Position numbers and translations under genes: made by a program. Shown here piece by piece: positions 1,882 through 17,268 of a DNA stretch of 20,416 nt (positions are counted from its first letter, which is position 1; every line of letters begins with the position of its first letter). Source of the stretch: a virus; the IMG/VR virus record IMGVR_UViG_3300043803_002720, positions 1-20,416 of that record; one strand, written 5' to 3'. The notes under the pieces were generated by a model. That model was not told the origin of the DNA, made no database searches, and worked only from the letters and a program-made list of their open reading frames with translations.

Positions 1882-3615
1882 TTATTGAGTCGGTTGTTTA
1901 CTTTGTTCCAGCCCTTGGCTACGTGCCTGAGAAGTCATTTGCTCTAATTGAGACTTAACGGTAGCATAAAGTGCTTGGTCTGTTGCCTTTATTTCTTGCA
2001 ACTTACTTCTGCGCTGCGCTCCATCTAATGGAAATAGCTGTTGCGCAATGTCCTGGGCTTGTTGTAGTGCATCTTGAGGAGTAGCAGGTCCTGCCGCCCC
2101 TTGAGGCTGGTTAGCGCTCATAACATCGTAAATATTAACGTTGTTCAATTGAGCAAATTCATCTTTTTCTTGTTCTTCTATTTGAAGATCTTTAGCTATA
2201 CGGTCTTCTTCGGTTTTCTTCCGTAGCTGGTCTTCATAATCAAAGTTGTATAGGTTGAGAAGTTCTGATCTAGCGATAGCATTAGCAGAAACAAGTTGTC
2301 CGATGACAGATTTGCGCTCGATATCGTCCGAGAAAGAAATCGGTATCAACCCAACCTTGGCCTTAGGAAGTGATAAAATTTTACCTATAACATCAGCAAG
2401 GTGATTTAAAAGAACGTTGTAGTTGTTAGGTATAACATTCCAAGAATTCTCAAATAGTCTCAAAGCTGGACCAGCTGCTTCAGCTTTCAAAGACATTTGG
2501 AAAAGCTCCACAGGTATATCGAGAGCATTCAGAATATTATTTTTATAATTTTCCATCAATTCAACAGGAGCTAAATTTTTACCTTCACCACCGAGTTGTT
2601 GATAGTTGATGGGGAATGGGAACTTGTGATAAGCACCTGGATCTTTACGATGCTCATCAATCATTTCGTCTACAGAAGCAGCCCAAATACCGCCGTTTTG
2701 ATGCAAAATTGGGTTGGCTGCCGAGTTACTCTCTGGACTCATCGAAATAACTCTGAATGGGGCTATATCTTCGTAGCAAATAACCTCGTTATACTTCTTC
2801 AGTGTTTGAAGCATGAAAAGATCTTCGAACAAAAACATACAGGGAGGAATAGCTTTACCGTCTGTTCTCAAGGTTGTAGGAGTTTCTAGTTTGAGATGCA
2901 GAAAGTTTTTGGTATTGAAAGACAGCATTTTCTTGTCAAAAATACAGTCGTAAATTACCTTCGGAGTTTTTTTACTGTAAAACTTATTATTCTTAGTAGT
3001 TACTTTCTTAATGTACTGCTGTGGTATATCCCAAAAATACTCATATTCTCCGGTAGTATCTTCGTAACGAATCTTAATTTCTTTGGCGGGCCAGTGAACT
3101 ATGTGTATTTTTGAAATATCGTTCGAAGGTTTGTCGATAACGAGATGCTCCCCTTTATAGCCGCACTTTAAACAAGTTTTAGTATATTTACCCTTGTTAA
3201 ATTCAAAGTTATTAACTTTGTCGATATTGTCTACTCTCCCACATTTAGGACATGACAGATTTCTAACAAACCCCTGGTTAACAGTTAAAAATTCATTTCC
3301 AAAAGCCAACAAATTCAACCCAGCAACACTCAATATTTGCCGCCACTTCAGCTCTTCTAAAACTTCTTTATATTTTTCTTTGGCTTCAGAATCATCACAT
3401 TCCACATTAAGAGAAGTGATGAAATAGTTAGCAATTCGGTTTAATGCCTGCTTATAGAAACCGTTACGGAAAAGAAAATGCTCAGCCCAAAGCAACATTC
3501 CGTCAATATTTAACGGCATGTATTGAAGGGGTATATTATAAAAAGGATTACTATAGCGGTCATTCTTCCCCAACCCTGTCTGGAAAAATGCTTGTGGTTC
3601 GTTAGGATTTATCAT
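1882..3615 (-). CDS. Portal protein with an inserted zinc ribbon
   Basis: 577 residues. Portal rings sit at one capsid vertex, admit DNA during packaging and connect to the tail (family knowledge). What supports the call: length, position upstream of tail genes, an N-terminal clip/wing style region, 'NNILNALDIPVELFQMSLK' in the position where portals carry N-x-x-L-D-I-P-x-x-L/L-x-x, a 'SVIGQLVSANAIARSELL' helical stretch, and a Gln/Ala-rich coiled C-terminus. A four-cysteine zinc ribbon is inserted near residues 122-151 (C-P-K-C ... C-L-K-C), which most portals lack but which occurs in several large-phage portals. ATG at 3615, no clear Shine-Dalgarno. Downstream gene follows after 5 bp. Confidence in 'portal' is good but rests on motif reading, not an alignment. 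Confidence 0.75.
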   Translation of the reverse strand: MINPNEPQAFFQTGLGKNDRYSNPFYNIPLQYMPLNIDGMLLWAEHFLFRNGFYKQALNRIANYFITSLNVECDDSEAKEKYKEVLEELKWRQILSVAGLNLLAFGNEFLTVNQGFVRNLSCPKCGRVDNIDKVNNFEFNKGKYTKTCLKCGYKGEHLVIDKPSNDISKIHIVHWPAKEIKIRYEDTTGEYEYFWDIPQQYIKKVTTKNNKFYSKKTPKVIYDCIFDKKMLSFNTKNFLHLKLETPTTLRTDGKAIPPCMFLFEDLFMLQTLKKYNEVICYEDIAPFRVISMSPESNSAANPILHQNGGIWAASVDEMIDEHRKDPGAYHKFPFPINYQQLGGEGKNLAPVELMENYKNNILNALDIPVELFQMSLKAEAAGPALRLFENSWNVIPNNYNVLLNHLADVIGKILSLPKAKVGLIPISFSDDIERKSVIGQLVSANAIARSELLNLYNFDYEDQLRKKTEEDRIAKDLQIEEQEKDEFAQLNNVNIYDVMSANQPQGAAGPATPQDALQQAQDIAQQLFPLDGAQRRSKLQEIKATDQALYATVKSQLEQMTSQARSQGLEQSKQPTQ

Positions 3616-6486: not shown

Positions 6487-6498
6487 CGCCCTATTTTT

Positions 6499-6569
6499 TA
6501 CCTCGTGGTGTAATGGTAGCACAAGAGTTTTTGGCACTCTTTGTCATAGTTCGAGTCTATGCGAGGTAG
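6499..6569 (+). tRNA. tRNA-Gln (anticodon TTG)
   Basis: Seven-pair acceptor stem (6499-6505 with 6562-6568), T8, 4-pair D stem with GG in the loop, anticodon stem AGAGT/ACTCT with loop TTTTGGC giving TTG, 4-nt variable loop, perfect 5-pair T stem with loop TTCGAGT, discriminator G6569. The 3' CCA is not encoded and must be added. Reads CAA and CAG. Sits 13 bp after the terminator and 10 bp before the next tRNA. Confidence 0.9.
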
Positions 6570-6579
6570 TAGTAGATTA

Positions 6580-6673
6580 GCTGGATTAGTGTAACTGGAA
6601 GCACCGACGGTCTTATAAGCCGTGTGCCCTAGATGAGGGCCGAGCGTAGGTTCGATTCCTACATCCAGCACCA
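6580..6673 (+). tRNA. Class II tRNA with UAU anticodon (identity uncertain)
   Basis: Acceptor 6580-6586 with 6663-6669 (7 pairs), discriminator A6670, encoded CCA 6671-6673, T stem GTAGG/CCTAC with loop TTCGATT. D stem GTG/CAC with GG in the loop. The anticodon stem ACGGT/GCCGT encloses CTTATAA, so positions 34-36 are TAT, which would read AUA (Ile). A long variable arm (stem GCCCT/AGGGC, 6626-6640) makes it class II, the class used by Leu, Ser and bacterial Tyr, not Ile. One extra nucleotide lies between D and anticodon stems. A73 is compatible with Leu. The charging enzyme cannot be decided here. Confidence 0.75.
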
Positions 6674-6700
6674 ACCGTAACAACAAACATAAAACACAAT

Positions 6701-6859
6701 ATGCCTAGCAAAAAACCCACAAAGAAAGCAGCTCCTAAAAAAGCCGCAGCAAAAAAACCGGCAGCTAAAAAATCAGCAGCTAAAAAAGTCGACACTAAAA
6801 AAGATCCTGCTCCTACTTCCCTCTCCATTCCTGGTTATGGAAGACGTGCAGCAAAATGA
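6701..6859 (+). CDS. Lysine/alanine/proline-rich histone H1-tail-like protein
   Basis: 52 residues starting at ATG 6701 (MPSKKPTKKAAPKK...), built of about six repeats of the A/P-A-K-K type followed by a short tail ending in 'SIPGYGRRAAK'. The composition matches histone H1-type C-terminal tails, AlgP and chlamydial Hc1-like proteins that bind DNA or RNA electrostatically (family knowledge). The stop overlaps the next ATG (ATGA at 6856). Downstream of two tRNAs with a CA-rich leader. Likely a nucleic-acid condensing or packaging protein; which one is inference. It is too short for a folded domain. Confidence 0.75.
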   Translation: MPSKKPTKKAAPKKAAAKKPAAKKSAAKKVDTKKDPAPTSLSIPGYGRRAAK

Positions 6860-7359
6860 AAGGTTCTTTAGCTGTAGACTCAGTTAAATTACACTTTTTC
6901 TCTGACTCACTCTATAGGTTAGCTGGGTGTGCGTACTCAGCTATTAGTATACTCACTGGAGAAAATCCCGAGTTGTTAAGAAAACATTATAAAGATGCAT
7001 CAGGAATGCCTCCGAATGTAATGTTAAAACATCTTAAAAAACTCAAATTTACTATAAAAAAAATAGATAAAAATTTTCTCTATAAATTAATACAAGAAGG
7101 AAAATATGTCACAGATAGCCATGTAATTTTGGCGTCTGTGAGAATGAATAAAAAAGAAGCTTCTTGGGTCGTACTGTATGGGGGAAATATGTGGCATAAC
7201 TTTGTACCGTTGAGTACATCTTACGTCACCTCCATGAGTTATCCTATGGAGCATGGATATGTCTTGTATTTGCCTGAATGGAGAACATGTGCAATTAATA
7301 CTGTGATAGATAAGCGGATATTAAGATTACAAAAACTTAAAAGACGAACACTACATTAA
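6856..7359 (+). CDS. Possible C39/papain-like cysteine protein, 167 aa
   Basis: Starts in ATGA overlap with the histone-like gene. Residues about 21-37 (Y-R-L-A-G-C-A-Y-S-A-I-S-I-L-T-G) put a single Cys at the start of a helix, and later 'DSHVILASVRMNKKEASWVVLYGGNMWHN' gives a conserved-looking His and a W-H-N on beta strands. Cys-helix then His-strand is the order in C39 and other papain-like peptidases, but the oxyanion Gln normally before the Cys is not seen (A-G-C instead). I therefore offer a fold guess, not an activity. No signal peptide. Next gene begins one base after the stop. Confidence 0.7.
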   Translation: MKGSLAVDSVKLHFFSDSLYRLAGCAYSAISILTGENPELLRKHYKDASGMPPNVMLKHLKKLKFTIKKIDKNFLYKLIQEGKYVTDSHVILASVRMNKKEASWVVLYGGNMWHNFVPLSTSYVTSMSYPMEHGYVLYLPEWRTCAINTVIDKRILRLQKLKRRTLH

Positions 7360-7360
7360 A

Positions 7361-7558
7361 ATGTTAATAACAAAAACCTCCCAATTAACCGGTAAAACAC
7401 ATACGTTAGATATCCCTGTTACTGAGCACCAATTGAGTGCTTGGAAAACATCAGGTAAAACTATACAGTCAGTATTACCTCATCTCACAGCAGATGAAAG
7501 AGAGTTTATTCTGACTGGTGTTACAACTACTGAGTGGAACAACGTTTTTTCAAGATGA
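7361..7558 (+). CDS. Small phage protein of the 'TKTS..GKTHTLDIPVT' family, unknown
   Basis: 65 residues: MLITKTSQLTGKTHTLDIPVT ... LTADEREFILTGVTTTEWNNVF. I recognise this pattern (T-x-T-S-x-x-T/S-G-x-x-x-x-L/M-D-L/I-x-V-T, then L-T-x-D-E-R-E-F-I-x-T-G-V-T-x-x-E-W) as a widely shared small protein of large phages and some bacteria with no assigned function. No membrane segment. Begins 1 bp after the previous stop and its TGA overlaps the ATG of the following membrane peptide. Confidence 0.8.
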   Translation: MLITKTSQLTGKTHTLDIPVTEHQLSAWKTSGKTIQSVLPHLTADEREFILTGVTTTEWNNVFSR

Positions 7559-7656
7559 AGCATTTGACAACTATTTTCTATAGTCTATCTATAGTTGGAA
7601 CGTTTGCTCTGTTCTGGTTCTTTGCCATTTACGGAGCAATACATTTCTTTAAATAA
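7555..7656 (+). CDS. 33-aa single-pass membrane peptide
   Basis: ATGA overlap with the preceding gene at 7555. MKHLTTIFYSLSIVGTFALF... is almost entirely hydrophobic (about residues 6-30), so one transmembrane helix with a short Lys tail. It ends 6 bp before the Met tRNA. Translational coupling and an intact frame support expression. It could be a small holin-like or membrane-modifying peptide; nothing in the sequence decides. Confidence 0.55.
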   Translation: MKHLTTIFYSLSIVGTFALFWFFAIYGAIHFFK

Positions 7657-7662
7657 TTTATA

Positions 7663-7735
7663 GGGGTGGTAGCTCAATGGTTAGAGCAGTCGGCTCATAA
7701 TCGATTGGTTGGGGGTTCGAATCCCTCCCGCCCCA
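7663..7735 (+). tRNA. tRNA-Met or tRNA-Ile2 (anticodon CAT), elongator type
   Basis: Acceptor 7663-7669 with 7728-7734 (7 pairs, one G-T), D stem GCTC/GAGC with C11-G24 (elongator type), anticodon stem GTCGG/TCGAT, loop CTCATAA giving CAT, T stem with loop TTCGAAT, discriminator A7735, no encoded CCA. CAT can be Met or, after lysidine modification of C34, Ile decoding AUA. The choice between these is not readable here, and depends on the host TilS enzyme. Confidence 0.88.
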
Positions 7736-7743
7736 CACTTTGT

Positions 7744-7947
7744 ATGAAAAAATCTAAACGCAAATACACAGCAAAAAAATACGAACATCTTTTTTTCGCT
7801 GTTACTCAAGGTGAAAACGAAGACTACAAGAGAATGTACAATCTCATGGTAGACTTTGGCTTAACCAAGCAGCAAATATTCAAAAGATTCACAGAATATT
7901 TGGAGACATATCGACACGAAGCCGATATGATTTTAAAGAAAATATAA
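7744..7947 (+). CDS. Basic helical 67-aa protein, unknown
   Basis: The open frame extends back through the tRNA, but the real start is ATG 7744 (MKKSKRKYTAKKYEHLFFAV...). Very basic N-terminus (about 8 Lys/Arg in the first 13 residues), then amphipathic helical sequence (NLMVDFGLTKQQIFKRFTEY). The middle looks like a helix-turn-helix style arrangement (F-G-L-T-K-Q-Q-I-F-K-R-F), so nucleic-acid binding is possible. Sandwiched between the Met and Arg tRNAs, 6 bp before the latter. Confidence 0.65.
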   Translation: MKKSKRKYTAKKYEHLFFAVTQGENEDYKRMYNLMVDFGLTKQQIFKRFTEYLETYRHEADMILKKI

Positions 7948-7953
7948 CACAAC

Positions 7954-8029
7954 GCGCTGGTAGCTCAGTGGATAGAGCAGTAGCCTTCTAAGCTATTGGT
8001 CGCAGGTTCGATCCCTGCTCAGCGCGCCA
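7954..8029 (+). tRNA. tRNA-Arg (anticodon TCT)
   Basis: Acceptor 7954-7960 with 8019-8025, discriminator G8026 and encoded CCA 8027-8029. D arm GCTC/GAGC, anticodon stem GTAGC/GCTAT with loop CTTCTAA giving TCT, T stem GCAGG/CCTGC with loop TTCGATC. Reads AGA and AGG, which are common in this AT-rich genome and rare in many hosts. Confidence 0.92.
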
Positions 8030-8231: not shown

Positions 8232-8379
8232 AAGAAAGTACACTCACGAAACACCTAATGAGTTAAAATATTTTTTACATCTCAGAGTACAAAATCTGGA
8301 CCAGTCTCACTACCCTGAAGATGCCGAAGTAGATAAGCGCGAATTTAACTTATTGAAAGTAGGAGATAGATTTGAATGA
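8218..8379 (+). CDS. 53-aa charged protein upstream of uvdE, unknown
   Basis: ATG 8218 (MKIIERKYTHETPNEL...) overlaps the membrane-protein gene by 14 bp in another frame, and its TGA (8377-8379) overlaps the uvdE start (ATGA). The sequence is rich in Glu, Asp and His (SHYPEDAEVDKREF) and ends F-N-L-L-K-V-G-D-R-F-E. No recognisable domain. The double overlap strongly suggests translational coupling into uvdE. Confidence 0.65.
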   Translation: MKIIERKYTHETPNELKYFLHLRVQNLDQSHYPEDAEVDKREFNLLKVGDRFE

Positions 8380-9296
8380 ACCCTATCACTAAAACACGAT
8401 TAGGTTATTGCTGTATCTCTCTAGGTAAGTTCGAAAGCTCTTTTAAAACTGTCACACTGACAAAAACAAGAACGTTATCTAAAACCGAAGCCCGAGAAAA
8501 GCTGTTTAAAACCTGGATAAACAACCTCCACGAGTATTGCGAAATTTTGCAATATAATATGGATGCGGGTATAAAACTCTACAGAATCAGTAGCGATCTG
8601 TTTCCATTAGCAGACCATGAAGAATTCGAATACATCTGGAATGAATTTAGTTTTGTGAAAAACTATTGGAATAGCGCCCGATATTTCACAAACGAGTTTC
8701 TGGAGAACGGTGGAAGACTTTGTGCTCATCCCGGGCAATTTGTTTCCCTGGGTAGCCCTTCAAAAAAGGTACGCAAAAATTCCATAACTAACTTAGAGTT
8801 ACATGCTGTGGTATTTGATCGTCTAGGCTTACACTTAGACAGAAATTCTCCACTCAATATCCATCTCAGCAACGGTAAAGATAATATAAAAAATCTGCCT
8901 TTCTTTGAAGAGTCGCTGAGTGAATTGAGCGACAGTGTGAAAAACAGGTTAGTGTTTGAAAACGAGGATAAATCTTTCTGGACTTGGCAGAATATTAGAA
9001 AATATTTTTCCACCTATCCAGTCACTTTAGATTTTCATCACAGAAATCTAAACAATGAAGAAGAGTCTGAGATAGAGGCATTTGATGCTTGCGTTGAATC
9101 TTGGTGGCCTGTGCGACCCATAATGCACATCTCTGATGGTCGTGAAAGTCCTATGGATCGTAGTCACCATGATTGGGTAGCCGAATTACCTCCGGTAGTT
9201 CTGAAGCCTAGCGGCGTAGATCTCGAAATTGAGGCGAAGAAGAAAGATCTTGCTGTACTTTTCTTGAAGAGTAAATATAGTAACGAAGTAATTTAA
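8376..9296 (+). CDS. uvdE: UV-damage endonuclease, UvdE/UvsE family
   Basis: 306 residues, close to the family size of about 300. The enzyme nicks DNA 5' of UV photoproducts and other lesions, beginning an alternative excision repair; it is a TIM barrel with three metal ions (family knowledge). Matching motifs in order: R-L-G-Y-C at the N-terminus, Y-R-I-S-S-D-L-F-P, C-A-H-P-G-Q-F-V-S-L, N-L-E-L-H, 'INIHLSNGKDN'-type His strand, L-V-F-E-N-E-D, T-L-D-F-H-H-R-N, M-H-I-S-D-G-R and S-H-H-D-W. All the His/Glu/Asp ligand positions expected by the family appear kept, so activity is likely. It starts in an ATGA overlap. A phage copy would repair its own genome during infection of a light-exposed host. 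Confidence 0.93.
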   Translation: MNPITKTRLGYCCISLGKFESSFKTVTLTKTRTLSKTEAREKLFKTWINNLHEYCEILQYNMDAGIKLYRISSDLFPLADHEEFEYIWNEFSFVKNYWNSARYFTNEFLENGGRLCAHPGQFVSLGSPSKKVRKNSITNLELHAVVFDRLGLHLDRNSPLNIHLSNGKDNIKNLPFFEESLSELSDSVKNRLVFENEDKSFWTWQNIRKYFSTYPVTLDFHHRNLNNEEESEIEAFDACVESWWPVRPIMHISDGRESPMDRSHHDWVAELPPVVLKPSGVDLEIEAKKKDLAVLFLKSKYSNEVI

Positions 9297-11272: not shown

Positions 11273-11307
11273 TTGGATTAAAATATTATAAATTATATAC
11301 ATTTTAT

Positions 11308-11380
11308 TGCGGGGTACAATTCCGGCGAATTGGGGTGTCTCATAAGCATCTTTAGGTGGGTTCGACTCCCACCCCCGCTA
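11308..11380 (+). tRNA. tRNA with CAT anticodon, initiator-like features
   Basis: Acceptor 11308-11314 with 11373-11379: six pairs plus a T1-T72 mismatch at the end. D stem CAAT/ATTG with A11-T24, anticodon stem GGTGT/GCATC (two G-T), loop CTCATAA giving CAT, T stem GTGGG/CCCAC with loop TTCGACT, discriminator A11380, no CCA. Unpaired 1-72 and A11-U24 are the hallmarks of initiator tRNA-fMet; the third hallmark, three G-C pairs in the anticodon stem, is absent. Call: initiator-like Met or an odd elongator. Confidence 0.8.
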
Positions 11381-11437
11381 TACACATACACAAATATAGT
11401 GACTGCGGTGTGAACCTTGCGCTATGATTTCGAGTAT

Positions 11438-11510
11438 GGCTGTGTAGCCCAACGGCAGAGGCAGCAGACTTAAAATCTGTTCAGTGTGGGTTCGAATCCC
11501 ACCACAGCCA
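11438..11510 (+). tRNA. Class I tRNA with TAA anticodon (Leu by anticodon)
   Basis: Acceptor 11438-11444 with 11503-11509 (7 pairs), D stem GCC/GGC, anticodon stem GCAGA/TCTGT with loop CTTAAAA giving TAA, T stem GTGGG/CCCAC with loop TTCGAATC-type, discriminator A11510, no CCA. The variable loop is only 5 nt, so class I, whereas bacterial tRNA-Leu is class II. Anticodon UAA would read UUA/UUG. It is not a stop-reading tRNA (that would need TTA). Confidence 0.85.
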
Positions 11511-11518
11511 CTTCCTTA

Positions 11519-13292: not shown

Positions 13293-13300
13293 CTCCTGAA

Positions 13301-13399
13301 TTTGAATAGATAGCACACGAATTTTAAAGTGTTATTCGTGGCGGCTTCAACTGAGCTAGCTATCATTCAAACTCCCTGCTCCATGTGGATGTCAGGGAG
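13301..13399 (+). ncRNA. Compact structured RNA upstream of the SUMF1-like gene
   Basis: A 13-bp closing stem with one bulged A (13301-13314 with 13359-13371) holds a 7-bp hairpin CACGAAT/ATTCGTG (13316-13322/13334-13340) and a small GCT/AGC hairpin, forming a three-way junction. It is followed directly by a 7-bp hairpin CTCCCTG/CAGGGAG (13372-13378/13393-13399). No ORF fits here. It lies 90 nt before the ATG at 13489, so a 5' UTR element or small RNA. No known riboswitch class is recognised. Confidence 0.55.
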
Positions 13400-13488
13400 G
13401 CTTAATGCAGCCAGTGGCAATGTTTGTCGCTGATGGTCACAAGCCCATAAAATGCAGAGTGAGCAACCACAACAATAATACACAACAC

Positions 13489-14544
13489 ATGAAAAAATTA
13501 ATATATTTGTTTTTCTTGGCAATTACAGAATTTGCCGTAGGAGAAATAAACATTGAAACAGTTGTAATTGAAAACAGCGGGAACAGTGCAGATGTCCGCT
13601 CAGGAATGGGTGGAGTTTCTCACCGTTACGCTATAGGAAAATACGAAGTTACTGTTAAACAATACGCAGAGTTTTTAAATTCTATAGCAACAACCAACAC
13701 GGATAGTTGGATAGTTAACCTCTGGAATCCTGAAATGCAGTCGAACCCTAATATTGCAGGAATTGCACGAACTGGAAATGGAACAGCTGCAAATCCGTAT
13801 ATATACACTACTATAGGTGACGATACTCGACCTATAGCTTGTGTAAGTTGGTTTGATGCGGCGCGTTTTTGTAATTGGATGCATAACGGAGGAAACATTA
13901 ATTCAAGTACCGAAACAGGTGCCTATAATTTAAACGGAGCCACTACATCAGTTGTAGCTAAAAATTCCAATGCTAAATGGTATATACCTACTGAAAATGA
14001 GTGGTATAAGTCCGCCTTCAATAAACGCGAAGGTGGGTATTGGCGTTTTGCAAGTCAGAGAGACACAACTCCTGGTGCAGTTAATTATAGATACTCTGGC
14101 GGAAACACAGTATTTTATGCAGCCACAGGATCATCAGCATGGGCTCCCGTAAGCTATATTATGCCTGTGGGAACCTTTGGAAGTCAAAGTAGTTGGGGCA
14201 CCCTCGACCAAAGCGGTAATCTAAACGAATGGGTAGATACACCCAATGGACCTGCTATACGAGGAGGCTCATGGTTTGACCATGATGAAAAGAGGTTAAG
14301 TATATATGGCAGTATCTCAGAGCAGGGCTACAATGAAAATATTTATACAGGTTTTCGTGTAGCTAAAAGTTCTGCTCCCGAGCCCGCTAATGGAATACTT
14401 ACACTCGAAGTGAGTAATGGTATTTCTTCAGGCTGGACAGAGATCAAACTCGACGCATCCATGATAACTCCAGAAGGTAAAATTAATATTGGTACCCTAA
14501 CTAGTGATGCTGAGTTTTACCGGTTAAAAGTTGAAGCAAAATAA
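13489..14544 (+). CDS. Exported SUMF1/FGE-sulfatase fold protein (catalytic Cys absent)
   Basis: 351 residues. Start moved to ATG 13489 because MKKLIYLFFLAITEFAVG is a signal peptide and the leader ACCACAACAATA precedes it. Domain layout is the SUMF1 (formylglycine-generating enzyme/C-type lectin-like) fold: Y-A-I-G-K-Y-E-V-T-V-K-Q-Y-A-E-F-L-N, 'ACVSWFDAARFCNWM', W-Y-I-P-T-E-N-E-W-Y-K-S-A, G-T-L-D-Q-S-G-N-L-N-E-W-V, and A-I-R-G-G-S-W. True FGE has catalytic cysteines after G-G-S-F/W; here it reads S-W-F-D-H-D-E, so no FGE activity. The C-terminus (I-T-P-E-G-K-I-N-I-G ... F-Y-R-L-K-V) is like exported proteins of Verrucomicrobia and Planctomycetes. Likely a binding protein displayed outside the cell or on the virion. 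Confidence 0.85.
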   Translation: MKKLIYLFFLAITEFAVGEINIETVVIENSGNSADVRSGMGGVSHRYAIGKYEVTVKQYAEFLNSIATTNTDSWIVNLWNPEMQSNPNIAGIARTGNGTAANPYIYTTIGDDTRPIACVSWFDAARFCNWMHNGGNINSSTETGAYNLNGATTSVVAKNSNAKWYIPTENEWYKSAFNKREGGYWRFASQRDTTPGAVNYRYSGGNTVFYAATGSSAWAPVSYIMPVGTFGSQSSWGTLDQSGNLNEWVDTPNGPAIRGGSWFDHDEKRLSIYGSISEQGYNENIYTGFRVAKSSAPEPANGILTLEVSNGISSGWTEIKLDASMITPEGKINIGTLTSDAEFYRLKVEAK

Positions 14545-14556
14545 GTAACAATCACT

Positions 14557-14609
14557 TCAGCCCATTCGTGAGAGTGGGCTGATGTGTCTAGTCGCAATCA
14601 TGTGACTAG
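14557..14609 (+). terminator. Tandem hairpins in the intergenic gap
   Basis: First TCAGCCCA with TGGGCTGA (14557-14582, 8 bp), then CTAGTC with GACTAG (14588-14609, 6 bp). No T run, so they may stop ribosomes or nucleases, or act as a 5' cap-like structure of the next gene, whose leader ACCACAACAAAACC follows at once. Confidence 0.5.
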
Positions 14610-14626
14610 CAAACCACAACAAAACC

Positions 14627-14896
14627 ATGAGTAATAAAATAAAAAAAGCCAAAGAACTTTATCATGTTTTTCGTATTGTCGAAGAAAAAAACAATAAACA
14701 CTACTTTGATTACGACGAAACATTCGACACATATGAGAAAGCAGAAAAATATGTTTCAAGTATGTGCAAAAGATATACCGACGATTATTCTGATGCTGAG
14801 GAATCGTATACATTTGAATTGGTTATTCTGAAAGAGGTAAAAAACGTTCGTGGAGAGGTAAAAGTTAAAAAAATCAGAGAAGTTATTTTATCTTAA
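14627..14896 (+). CDS. 89-aa charged protein, unknown
   Basis: MSNKIKKAKELYHVFRIVEEKNNKHYFDYDETFDTYEKAEKYVSSMCKRYTDDYSDAEESYTFELVILK... A beta-alpha-beta pattern (Y-H-V-F-R-I-V-E ... D-T-Y-E-K-A-E-K-Y-V ... Y-T-F-E-L-V-I-L-K) suggests a ferredoxin-like small fold. CA-rich leader and preceding double hairpin. No known family assigned. Confidence 0.65.
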   Translation: MSNKIKKAKELYHVFRIVEEKNNKHYFDYDETFDTYEKAEKYVSSMCKRYTDDYSDAEESYTFELVILKEVKNVRGEVKVKKIREVILS

Positions 14897-14943
14897 AACA
14901 AAGTATTTACCCTAAACCACAACCTAGAAAGAAAACCACATAT

Positions 14944-16017
14944 ATGCCTGAAACAATAGACAAGATGAAACAGGCTTCCGACATGCTGCTCAAGGCAGCG
15001 GTGAAGGGAGTCTACGACCTCCAAAAACTCCGTGTTAGCATGGGGAATCGCCTGGTAGCACAATTCAAAGTTAAACTTGGTTATGTCCCTGGAACCAAGG
15101 AGGAAGACACGTTGGACGAGGAGGCAACCGAAACCCTCGACAATATCCGTTCTAGCTATAAAAAGCTTACGGATGGTATCAAGAAAGAGCTTCCTGCTAA
15201 AAAGCAGTTTAAGGCCGAGGGTATCATCCACGAATATGCTGAATTGGTGATGGTTCACCAATACATGTCGATGGAACGTCAGGAGGAGAGTCTCTTTCGC
15301 AAGATCGAGGATCTCCTGGAAGATCATCCGCTCTGGACCTCATTCCTCTCCCCAATCAGAGGATGTGGACCTGCCTTGGGTGCAGCAATCATCGCCAGCA
15401 TCGACATCACCAAAGCCGAATACCCCAGCTCGCTCTGGAAATATTGCGGCTTTGATGTAGTGCACGTTGGTCGCCAAGGAAAGAAGGGAATCGTTTCTAC
15501 CAACTTGAGAGAGGTGGAAGATTTCGATGCACTTATGGAGGACAAAACTACTGTTTCTCTCGTCAACCGCAACGACTTTAAAAAGTTGGGTGTGTTGACT
15601 ACTGGAGACATGGAATGGTCTTCTGAGGGGCGCAGAAAGAGGATGGACCACATGGTGGACCGTTGCCTCCTGAATCAGGACGGTGAGGTGGTGAAGACTT
15701 GGAAGAGCCTTCCCTACAACCCCTGGTTAAAGAGTCGTCTCTGGCTTCTCGGTAATAGCTTTCTCCGTTGCGGGAACGCGCATTACAGAGAAGTCTACGA
15801 GAACAGGAAGAATCGTTCCCTGAACCACCCCAAGTGGCAGAACGAATCCAAGAAACATATTCATGATGACGCACTCCGTTACATGATCAAGCGCTTCCTG
15901 GTAGACCTCTACAAGGCCTGGCGTCCTTTGGAAGGTCTCCCTGTTGCCCCTGAGTATTCAGAGGCAAAGCTGGGACTCAAGCACAAGAGTGCCCAGAAAT
16001 ACGCCCAAGCAGCCTAA
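14944..16017 (+). CDS. tasA: Tas-like protein (IS110/Nop-type domain), TIGR-Tas effector candidate
   Basis: 357 residues. Residues 1-130 are helical with no D-x-x-x-K/DEDD RuvC motifs as in IS110 transposases. Residues 138-170 (I-R-G-C-G-P-A-L-G-A-A-I-I-A-S-I-D ... S-S-L-W-K-Y-C-G-F) match the C-terminal Transposase_20/Nop-related region, followed by G-R-Q-G-K-K-G-I; 253-262 (W-K-S-L-P-Y-N-P-W-L) and the helix near 305-327 (H-I-H-D-D-A-L-R-Y-M) complete it. The catalytic Ser expected in IS110 is not seen, nor any HNH motif. The next 113 bp lead to an array of 36-bp units, the partner expected for Tas proteins of TIGR-Tas systems (family knowledge, recalled, not checked). GC content is visibly higher than in the neighbours, suggesting recent transfer. 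Main alternative: an IS110-like relic. The symbol tasA is provisional. Confidence 0.78.
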   Translation: MPETIDKMKQASDMLLKAAVKGVYDLQKLRVSMGNRLVAQFKVKLGYVPGTKEEDTLDEEATETLDNIRSSYKKLTDGIKKELPAKKQFKAEGIIHEYAELVMVHQYMSMERQEESLFRKIEDLLEDHPLWTSFLSPIRGCGPALGAAIIASIDITKAEYPSSLWKYCGFDVVHVGRQGKKGIVSTNLREVEDFDALMEDKTTVSLVNRNDFKKLGVLTTGDMEWSSEGRRKRMDHMVDRCLLNQDGEVVKTWKSLPYNPWLKSRLWLLGNSFLRCGNAHYREVYENRKNRSLNHPKWQNESKKHIHDDALRYMIKRFLVDLYKAWRPLEGLPVAPEYSEAKLGLKHKSAQKYAQAA

Positions 16018-16033
16018 CGGCTAGCCGCTCACA

Positions 16034-16061
16034 GCTCCCAGGGTGTCGAAGCCCTGGGAGC
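16034..16061 (+). terminator. 10-bp perfect hairpin between tas and array
   Basis: GCTCCCAGGG with CCCTGGGAGC, 8-nt loop TGTCGAAG, preceded by the palindrome CGGCTAGCCG (16018-16027) right after the tas stop. No T run follows, so it may be a processing or leader structure of the array transcript, or a weak terminator isolating tas from the array. Confidence 0.55.
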
Positions 16062-16129
16062 ATAGAGCTCTACTTTGTAACACTTTCATGGCGTGGTTAC
16101 GTCATGTTGTGGTTACCAATACGAACAAG

Positions 16130-16676
16130 ACACCCAAATAGAACCAGTGGATCATGAGCTTCACGACACCCAAAAAAAGAAGTTAGTCATGCGGAGGAAG
16201 ACACCCAGTGTTTAATAACGAACCATCTCTAATTATACACCCAGACCGGCCCAGTGAATCAGAAGCTCCCATACACCCAGAAAATCTCAGTGAATCATAG
16301 TGTGGTATACACCCAAATGAACGAAGTGAGTCAGGGAGAAGTATTCACCCATAGAGCCGAAACGCACCATTTGTGTATAGACACCCAGATAGACGAAGTG
16401 AATCAAAGTATCCGAGACACCCAGCTCGCGAAAGTGAGCCTTTAGGCGGCATACACACATTCAAACACAGCGTATCAAGGAGGAGCAGACACCCACTCAT
16501 AGAGAAATGCGTCAGAGGCGACCAGTCACCCTAAATCAACCAGCGAATCAATATTTGGTAGACACCCAAACCCTGGGAGTGAATCATTGTTCGCAAGTCA
16601 CCCATCCACGAAGAATGAGACGAAAGGCAAAATACACCCAACCACGCTTAACGAGTCAGGAACACTTTGACACCCG
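16130..16676 (+). repeat. TIGR-type array: 15 units of 36 bp plus a closing edge
   Basis: Edge block ACACCCA (variants TCACCCA, ACACACA, TCACCCT, ACACCCG) begins at 16130, 16166, 16201, 16237, 16273, 16309, 16345, 16381, 16417, 16453, 16489, 16526, 16562, 16598, 16634 and 16670. Spacing is 36 except one 35 (unit 2) and one 37 (unit 11). Sixteen nt after most edges is a loop block AGTGAATCA (variants AGTGAGTCA, AGTGGATCA, AACGAGTCA, AGCGTATCA). Between are 9 variable nt (for example AATAGAACC, GACCGGCCC) and, after the loop, 11 nt of which the last two are nearly always A then G/T, leaving 9 free. So edge-9, spacer-9, loop-9, spacer-9. All spacers differ. The two quasi-ORFs here (16254, 16507) are by-products of a period divisible by three. 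Confidence 0.85.
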
Positions 16677-16707
16677 AAAAAACCTAGCGTAACTTAATTT
16701 TTTAATC

Positions 16708-17268
16708 ATGGATAAAGAACGAGCAAAGAAGACTTTTTACAAAGTCCGGAGAGAATTAGGGGAGTTAGGAATACTCCCATTAATGCAGGATGTGAAATTA
16801 CACATTTCTGTATGGAGTCGGTATGTCTTGGGAGCCCGTGGATTTGTATACGATGAGGGTGTTCCACCCATGATGCGTATACTGGGCTTTCGTGGTGGTA
16901 TTATATACATTGCCAATGACATGACCAACGACAAGACCCTACTCAGTGTTATACGGCATGAATTTGCACACATCTGGGCATGGGCTAATCCCCGATTCCT
17001 GAAGCGCCCCTGGTTCAGGGAGGCTTTTGGAGATTCATACTTTTCCAGTAGGAGAAGTGGAAAAGTAAAATATTTCGAATTGTCAAAGTTCTATCTCACC
17101 CACGGTTCGGCATATGCACTCACCAACCCTGCCGAAGATTTTGCCGAGACATTCGAATTATACCTTAAACACAAAAACAATCTTGAGAGATTCCGCCACC
17201 GCCCAGGCCTCTACAAGAAATTAAAAGCTGTTAAACGGGCAATAAGGGAACAAGGAGAAAAATTATGA
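16708..17268 (+). CDS. HExxH zinc metallopeptidase-like protein
   Basis: 186 residues. S-V-I-R-H-E-F-A-H-I-W (His84, Glu85, His88) is a zincin motif; a third ligand may be in 'WFREAFGDSYF' or 'NPAEDFAETFELYL', the latter resembling the E/D-x-x-A-E-x-F segment of phage-encoded zincins. No signal or membrane segment, so a cytosolic or virion-associated protease, or an inactive relative. Starts 31 bp after the last array edge and translationally overlaps the next gene (ATGA). Confidence 0.78.
   Translation: MDKERAKKTFYKVRRELGELGILPLMQDVKLHISVWSRYVLGARGFVYDEGVPPMMRILGFRGGIIYIANDMTNDKTLLSVIRHEFAHIWAWANPRFLKRPWFREAFGDSYFSSRRSGKVKYFELSKFYLTHGSAYALTNPAEDFAETFELYLKHKNNLERFRHRPGLYKKLKAVKRAIREQGEKL

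What the first reader, a model, noticed from the sequence alone, without database searches (positions are those of the whole stretch)
16130..16676. Phage-borne TIGR array: dual-spacer 36-bp guide units
Seen directly: fifteen units with a 36-bp period in which only two short blocks are kept (edge ACACCCA and loop AGTGAATCA, 16 nt apart), with unique 9-nt stretches on both sides of each loop. This is not a CRISPR (repeat and spacers too short, two spacers per repeat), not a classical iteron row (the interspaces never repeat), and not a coding repeat (several stops and two frame changes). From memory, TIGR-Tas systems make 36-nt guides with two 9-nt spacers, next to a Nop-domain Tas protein. Such a Tas-like gene lies 113 bp upstream, on the same strand.
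Basis: partly seen in the sequence, partly recalled or inferred. Interest (0 to 1): 0.95.

Follow-up and report, generated by a model that had tools for sequence, protein, structure and literature searches.

The report
TIGR-TasA guide array in a phage
A large phage carries a genuine copy of the recently described TIGR-Tas system, a row of tiny dual-guide RNA genes beside a guide-binding protein without a cutting domain; it is a well-supported new example of a known kind, and what it aims at is still unknown.

Summary
The observation and its interpretation both hold. At 16130-16676 there are 15 full units (16 edges) with a 36-nt period (one of 35, one of 37). Edge AKACACCCA and loop AGTGAATCA alternate with 9-nt spacers that are near-random by column. 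The period signal is about 20 s.d. above shuffles. The gene 112 bp upstream (14944-16017, 357 aa) is a Tas protein: its best sequence matches in the PDB are TIGR-TasR (9mty, 1e-12) and TasH (21kl, 4e-9), and its model matches the same entries. It has a coiled coil and a Nop domain but no recognisable nuclease, so it is TasA-type. Homologues in phages and in bacterial and archaeal contigs mostly carry 36-nt dual-repeat arrays too, including Salicola phage CGphi29, whose system has been tested experimentally. The tas gene is compositionally foreign (GC3 60% against ~35%). A close relative phage has a different small gene where this one has FGE, tas and array. Spacer pairs gave no target above mispaired controls. 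Peculiarities are loops ending TCA while edges end CCA, and a 51-aa insert not seen in its relatives. New member of a known kind; function of TasA and its targets remain open.

The parts
14944..16017 (+). tasA-type gene, 357 aa: N-terminal coiled-coil helices (about 1-126), Nop/IS110-C-like domain (about 129-345), with a 51-aa insert (178-228) not seen in relatives; no RuvC or HNH nuclease recognised
   Evidence: phmmer to PDB 9mty TasR 1e-12 and 21kl TasH 4e-9; phrog_4285 2.4e-39; AF2 model and VIA-align Z 14.9-16.8 to TasH/TasR; insert from alignment
16018..16129 (+). leader between tas and array; strongly folded (z -4.1), with a GC-rich hairpin at about 16027-16068
16130..16676 (+). TIGR dual-repeat array: 16 edge repeats (AKACACCCA), 15 full units, 15 spacer pairs, 36-nt period
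   Evidence: the array transcript itself has no folding signal (z -0.09)
16677..16707 (+). degenerate terminal half-unit (loop-like AGCGTAACT at 16686-16694) followed by TTTTTT; no hairpin terminator seen
13293..16707 (+). variable cassette (FGE-sulfatase-like gene, 89-aa gene, tas, array); in relative phage L018 the same interval is about 306 bp with an unrelated small ORF

Best explanation
This is a phage-borne TIGR-TasA system. The array is transcribed from the + strand and cut within each edge repeat into 36-nt tigRNAs (inferred by homology). A TasA dimer holds each tigRNA by its edge and loop boxes. Spacer A pairs with one strand and spacer B with the other strand of an 18-bp DNA site, unwinding and bending it without cutting (inferred from TasR and TasH). 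The most likely use is programmable DNA binding that blocks replication or transcription of competing mobile elements or of host genes; this last step is a guess, as the targets are unknown.
For: Array geometry and significance. Tas homology to solved TasR and TasH and fold match standing above IS110 recombinases and Nop proteins. Homologous loci with 36-nt edge/loop arrays beside tas: L002 (Salicola phage CGphi29, the published SpTIGR), L003 (Microcystis phage), and L004-L009, L012, L082, L084, L087, L090, L091, L093. Starred clade 99/100 with such tas genes. Published behaviour of TasA, TasR and TasH (PMC12045711). No nuclease domain in Pfam; N-terminal part modelled as long helices.
Against: No RNA or binding data. 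Array repeats are more degenerate than in relatives, and loops mostly end TCA while edges end CCA, so some units may be inactive. No terminator hairpin after the array. No target found above mispaired controls.
Confidence: 0.92

Rival explanations
1. A decaying TIGR locus: the phage picked up a tas-array cassette that is no longer selected, and its repeats are eroding.
For: Loop exact in 4 of 15 units, edge core exact in 11 of 16, one 35-nt and one 37-nt unit, a degenerate last unit; foreign composition of tas; no tas found in 27 related phage records, many of them fragments.
Against: The tas reading frame is intact with invariant Nop residues kept. Key box positions (several edge C/A positions; loop first A and penultimate C) are invariant in all 15 units. 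Both odd units put the one-base change in spacer A, not in a repeat.
Confidence: 0.12
2. A row of protein-binding DNA sites (iterons, centromere or partition sites) rather than RNA genes.
For: Regular short repeats between genes on a phage genome.
Against: Alternating edge/loop blocks with unique 9-nt spacers, located beside a Tas homologue as in experimentally tested TIGR loci; no ParB-like or Rep family among the ORFs searched.
Confidence: 0.02
3. IS110-family transposase with a bridge-RNA region instead of a TIGR system.
For: Weak Pfam Transposase_20 match (0.053, below cut-off); PHROG name 'transposase'.
Against: No N-terminal DEDD/RuvC domain; fold Z about 10 to IS621 and ISCro4 against 15-17 to TasH and TasR; tandem array rather than a single bridge RNA.
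Confidence: 0.01

Closest known systems
TIGR-TasA systems (Faure et al. 2025, PMC12045711; e.g. Flavonifractor plautii FpTIGR)
   Same: Nuclease-less Nop protein beside a dual-repeat array; 36-nt units; two 9-nt spacers; 5-15 units typical; phage-borne
   Different: Edge ACACCCA and loop AGTGAATCA sequences, TCA/CCA asymmetry of box C, and a 51-aa insert in the Nop region. FpTIGR itself was not compared (no sequence at hand)
Salicola phage CGphi29 TasH locus (SpTIGR; HQ634153)
   Same: Homologous protein (tblastn 3e-5; PDB 21kl 4e-9), array just downstream, 36-nt period, similar boxes (edge AAGACAACCA, loop AAGCGAGCCA)
   Different: SpTasH has an N-terminal HNH nuclease, 10-nt repeats and 8-nt spacers
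Thermoproteota TasR (TaTIGR; PDB 9mty)
   Same: Nop and coiled-coil domains align; 36-nt guides with 9-nt spacers
   Different: TasR has an N-terminal RuvC nuclease; repeats start UG and end CCA
IMG/VR contig L004 (IMGVR_UViG_3300036761_001092) tas-array
   Same: Closest protein found (about 40-49% identity) with a 36-nt array of 25 or more units beside it
   Different: Edge AGAAAACCA, loop AGCGAGCCA; no 51-aa insert

Membership tests
TIGR-Tas | Array of two alternating 8-12-nt repeats separated by short (~9-nt) unique spacers, ~36-nt unit | tested here: met
TIGR-Tas | Adjacent gene for a Nop-domain Tas protein | tested here: met
   Sequence, PHROG, fold
TIGR-Tas | Homologous tas genes elsewhere sit beside the same kind of array | tested here: met
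   not seen beside some more distant or truncated loci (L010, L086, L088, L089, L092)
TIGR-Tas | Box C (CCA) and box D motifs shared by edge and loop repeats | tested here: inconclusive
   Edge ends CCA in 13 of 16; loop ends TCA in 11 of 15 and CCA in 2; TCA loops are a minority in relatives L002, L004, L006 and L091
TIGR-Tas | Processing into 36-nt tigRNAs | not testable with these tools
   Needs small-RNA sequencing
TIGR-Tas | tigRNA-directed dual-strand DNA binding | not testable with these tools
   Needs biochemistry; no natural target found
TIGR-Tas, TasA subtype | Nop domain without RuvC or HNH nuclease | tested here: met
   No nuclease family in Pfam; N-terminal ~126 residues modelled as long helices, mean pLDDT 62.8
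CRISPR | One 25-36-nt repeat with spacers of similar length | tested here: not met
   Two 9-nt repeats, 9-nt spacers
IS110 transposon | DEDD/RuvC catalytic domain before the C-terminal Nop-like domain | tested here: not met
   only sub-threshold Transposase_20; coiled-coil N-terminus

The most novel reading that the evidence does not exclude
A TIGR-TasA variant in which edge and loop boxes are no longer symmetric (CCA against UCA) and an added 51-aa module in the Nop domain recruits or acts as an effector, so that a large phage uses guide-directed DNA binding to silence host or rival genes.
Probability: 0.1. Interest if true: 0.65.

Novelty: new member of a known kind. Interest (0 to 1): 0.42.

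Why it matters
TasA is the commonest and least understood Tas effector, and its natural targets are unknown. This locus gives an intact phage-borne example in a lineage with many sequenced relatives in which no tas was found, and one relative with a different gene at the same place, which makes comparisons of gain, loss and targets possible.

Tried and rejected
Direct single-sequence peptide scans for relatives found none in viral or genome contigs; alignments were needed. No plasmid match. Spacer targets: pairs placed as spacer A, 0-2 nt, reverse complement of spacer B (geometry deduced from the published 8-nt 3' overhangs) were searched in 2.75 Mb including the window, tas-bearing phages and related large phages; all arrays together gave 5 matches with one mismatch and none exact, against 3-5 for mispaired controls. 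Exact scans of IMG/VR gave 2, 2 and 0 matches for three units against 1 for a mispaired control, on contigs that share no gene with the window. So there is no evidence for self-targeting or targeting of sibling phages among the sequences held; this does not exclude it. A lone one-mismatch hit of unit 2 involves an 8-nt A-rich spacer and was set aside. Rfam gave only tRNAs. Iteron, CRISPR and IS110 readings were rejected (see rivals). A resemblance of spacer 13A to the leader hairpin (D5) is within chance.

Full report
Observation. The repeats are real and lie where stated. Sixteen edge repeats and fifteen loops between them make 15 complete units from 16130 to 16676. Thirteen units are 36 nt, one is 35 and one is 37; in both odd units the change falls in spacer A (8 and 10 nt), which leaves the repeats intact. 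The edge is AKACACCCA and the loop A[GA][TC]GA[AG]TCA. Repeat columns hold 0.76-2.0 bits; spacer columns are near background. A blind scan of periods 30-45 picks 36 as best for the window, and the score is far outside 200 dinucleotide shuffles (1.128 against a maximum of 0.780).

The protein. The ORF at 14944-16017 (357 aa) ends 112 bp before the first edge. Against all PDB sequences it matches only two entries' sequences convincingly: 9mty, the 331-residue chain of the TIGR-TasR structure (E 1e-12), and TasH (21kl and others, E 4e-9). It matches PHROG 4285 at 2.4e-39; that family's label 'transposase' probably reflects the IS110-like C-terminus. An AlphaFold model from an eight-row alignment (mean pLDDT 62.8, weak at 173-236) matches TasH and TasR first (VIA-align Z 14.9-16.8), then IS110 recombinases (Z about 10), then lower-scoring helical proteins among which Nop and Prp31 proteins are frequent. 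The first ~126 residues are long helices, consistent with the coiled coil of Nop proteins, and no nuclease domain was found, so it is TasA-type.

Relatives. Homologues were found in Salicola phage CGphi29 (the published SpTIGR locus) and Microcystis phage Mvi-JY20, in IMG/VR contigs and in bacterial and archaeal contigs. In most of them a 36-nt edge/loop array sits next to tas. Relatives use edges such as AGAAACCCA and loops such as AGCGAGCCA; the window's ACACCCA and AGTGAATCA are variants of the same plan. No array was seen beside a few distant or truncated loci. A tree puts the window in a nine-member clade (99/100) with tas genes from viral, Desulfobacterales, Spirochaetota, Omnitrophota, Hydrogenedentota and Neomarinimicrobiota contigs; the deeper part of that tree is weak.

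Where it sits. The window is a 20,416-base virus record, probably a fragment of a large phage: the 577-aa protein at 1882-3615 (probably the portal, judged by eye only) has relatives in contigs up to 204 kb. None of 27 related records contains a Tas match, though many are fragments; the same model does find its own members. In the relative L018 (91% identity in the 1882-3615 protein) the genes matching 13110 and 16708 are separated by about 306 bp holding an unrelated small ORF, where the window has 3.4 kb with an FGE-like gene, an 89-aa gene, tas and the array. The tas gene has 50% GC and GC3 60%, against GC3 of about 26-44% for the other genes measured. Acquisition into a variable spot is the simplest inference.

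Mechanism. Shown by others for this family (PMC12045711): arrays are processed to 36-nt tigRNAs; processing needs TasR; one tigRNA binds a Tas dimer; spacer A and spacer B pair with opposite strands of an 18-bp site, with gaps of 0-2 bp tolerated; no adjacent motif is needed; TasA also binds 36-nt RNAs. Inferred here: the same for this locus, with DNA binding and bending but no cutting. The array transcript has no folding signal (z -0.09), as expected of the dual-repeat type rather than the stem-loop type, whereas the leader between tas and array is strongly folded (z -4.1); its role is unknown.

Targets. With the geometry spacer A, 0-2 nt, reverse complement of spacer B, no excess of matches over mispaired spacers was found in 2.75 Mb of related and own phage DNA for the window's array or for sixteen other loci's arrays, nor in exact scans of IMG/VR for three units. 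The purpose therefore stays open.

What is unusual. (a) Edge repeats end CCA in 13 of 16 but loops end TCA in 11 of 15, while in relatives loops mostly end CCA; the published work reports that these boxes almost always covary. (b) Residues 178-228 are absent from all eight other members of its clade. (c) The repeats are more degenerate than in close relatives such as L004 and L006. These are differences of degree, not enough for a new variant without experiments. Verdict: new member of a known kind.

Noticed in passing
16094-16118: TGGTTAC occurs twice, 16 nt apart, exactly in phase with the array (36 nt before the first edge and first loop); the second reads TGGTTACCA, which has the UG...CCA form of TasR repeats. 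Possibly a relict leading unit, possibly chance.
   Followed up: partly
L004:8916-9815; L005:3429-3755: Repeated spacers or spacer blocks inside one array (for example GCAATGGCA three times in L004; a duplicated stretch AAATCTACA...GCGTATCGC in L005), suggesting growth of TIGR arrays by internal duplication.
   Followed up: no
L005:3429-3755 and 7840-7950; L006:6968-7870 and 9116 onward: Two separate arrays lie near one tas gene; L006 has about 50 units in all by a simple parser, well above the 5-15 said to be usual.
   Followed up: no
6498-8029 and 11307-11511: Six tRNA genes (Gln, Ile, Met, Arg, Met, Leu) scattered in the window.
   Followed up: no
8376-9296: UvdE-type UV endonuclease gene (Pfam 6.1e-47), shared with related large phages.
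   Followed up: no
13405-14544: Formylglycine-generating-enzyme-like (FGE-sulfatase) gene in the same variable interval as tas, with no match in the related phage DNA examined by tblastn.
   Followed up: partly
16708-17268: Putative zinc metallopeptidase (Peptidase_Mx, 3e-9) directly after the array; a homologue lies at the matching place in L018.
   Followed up: partly
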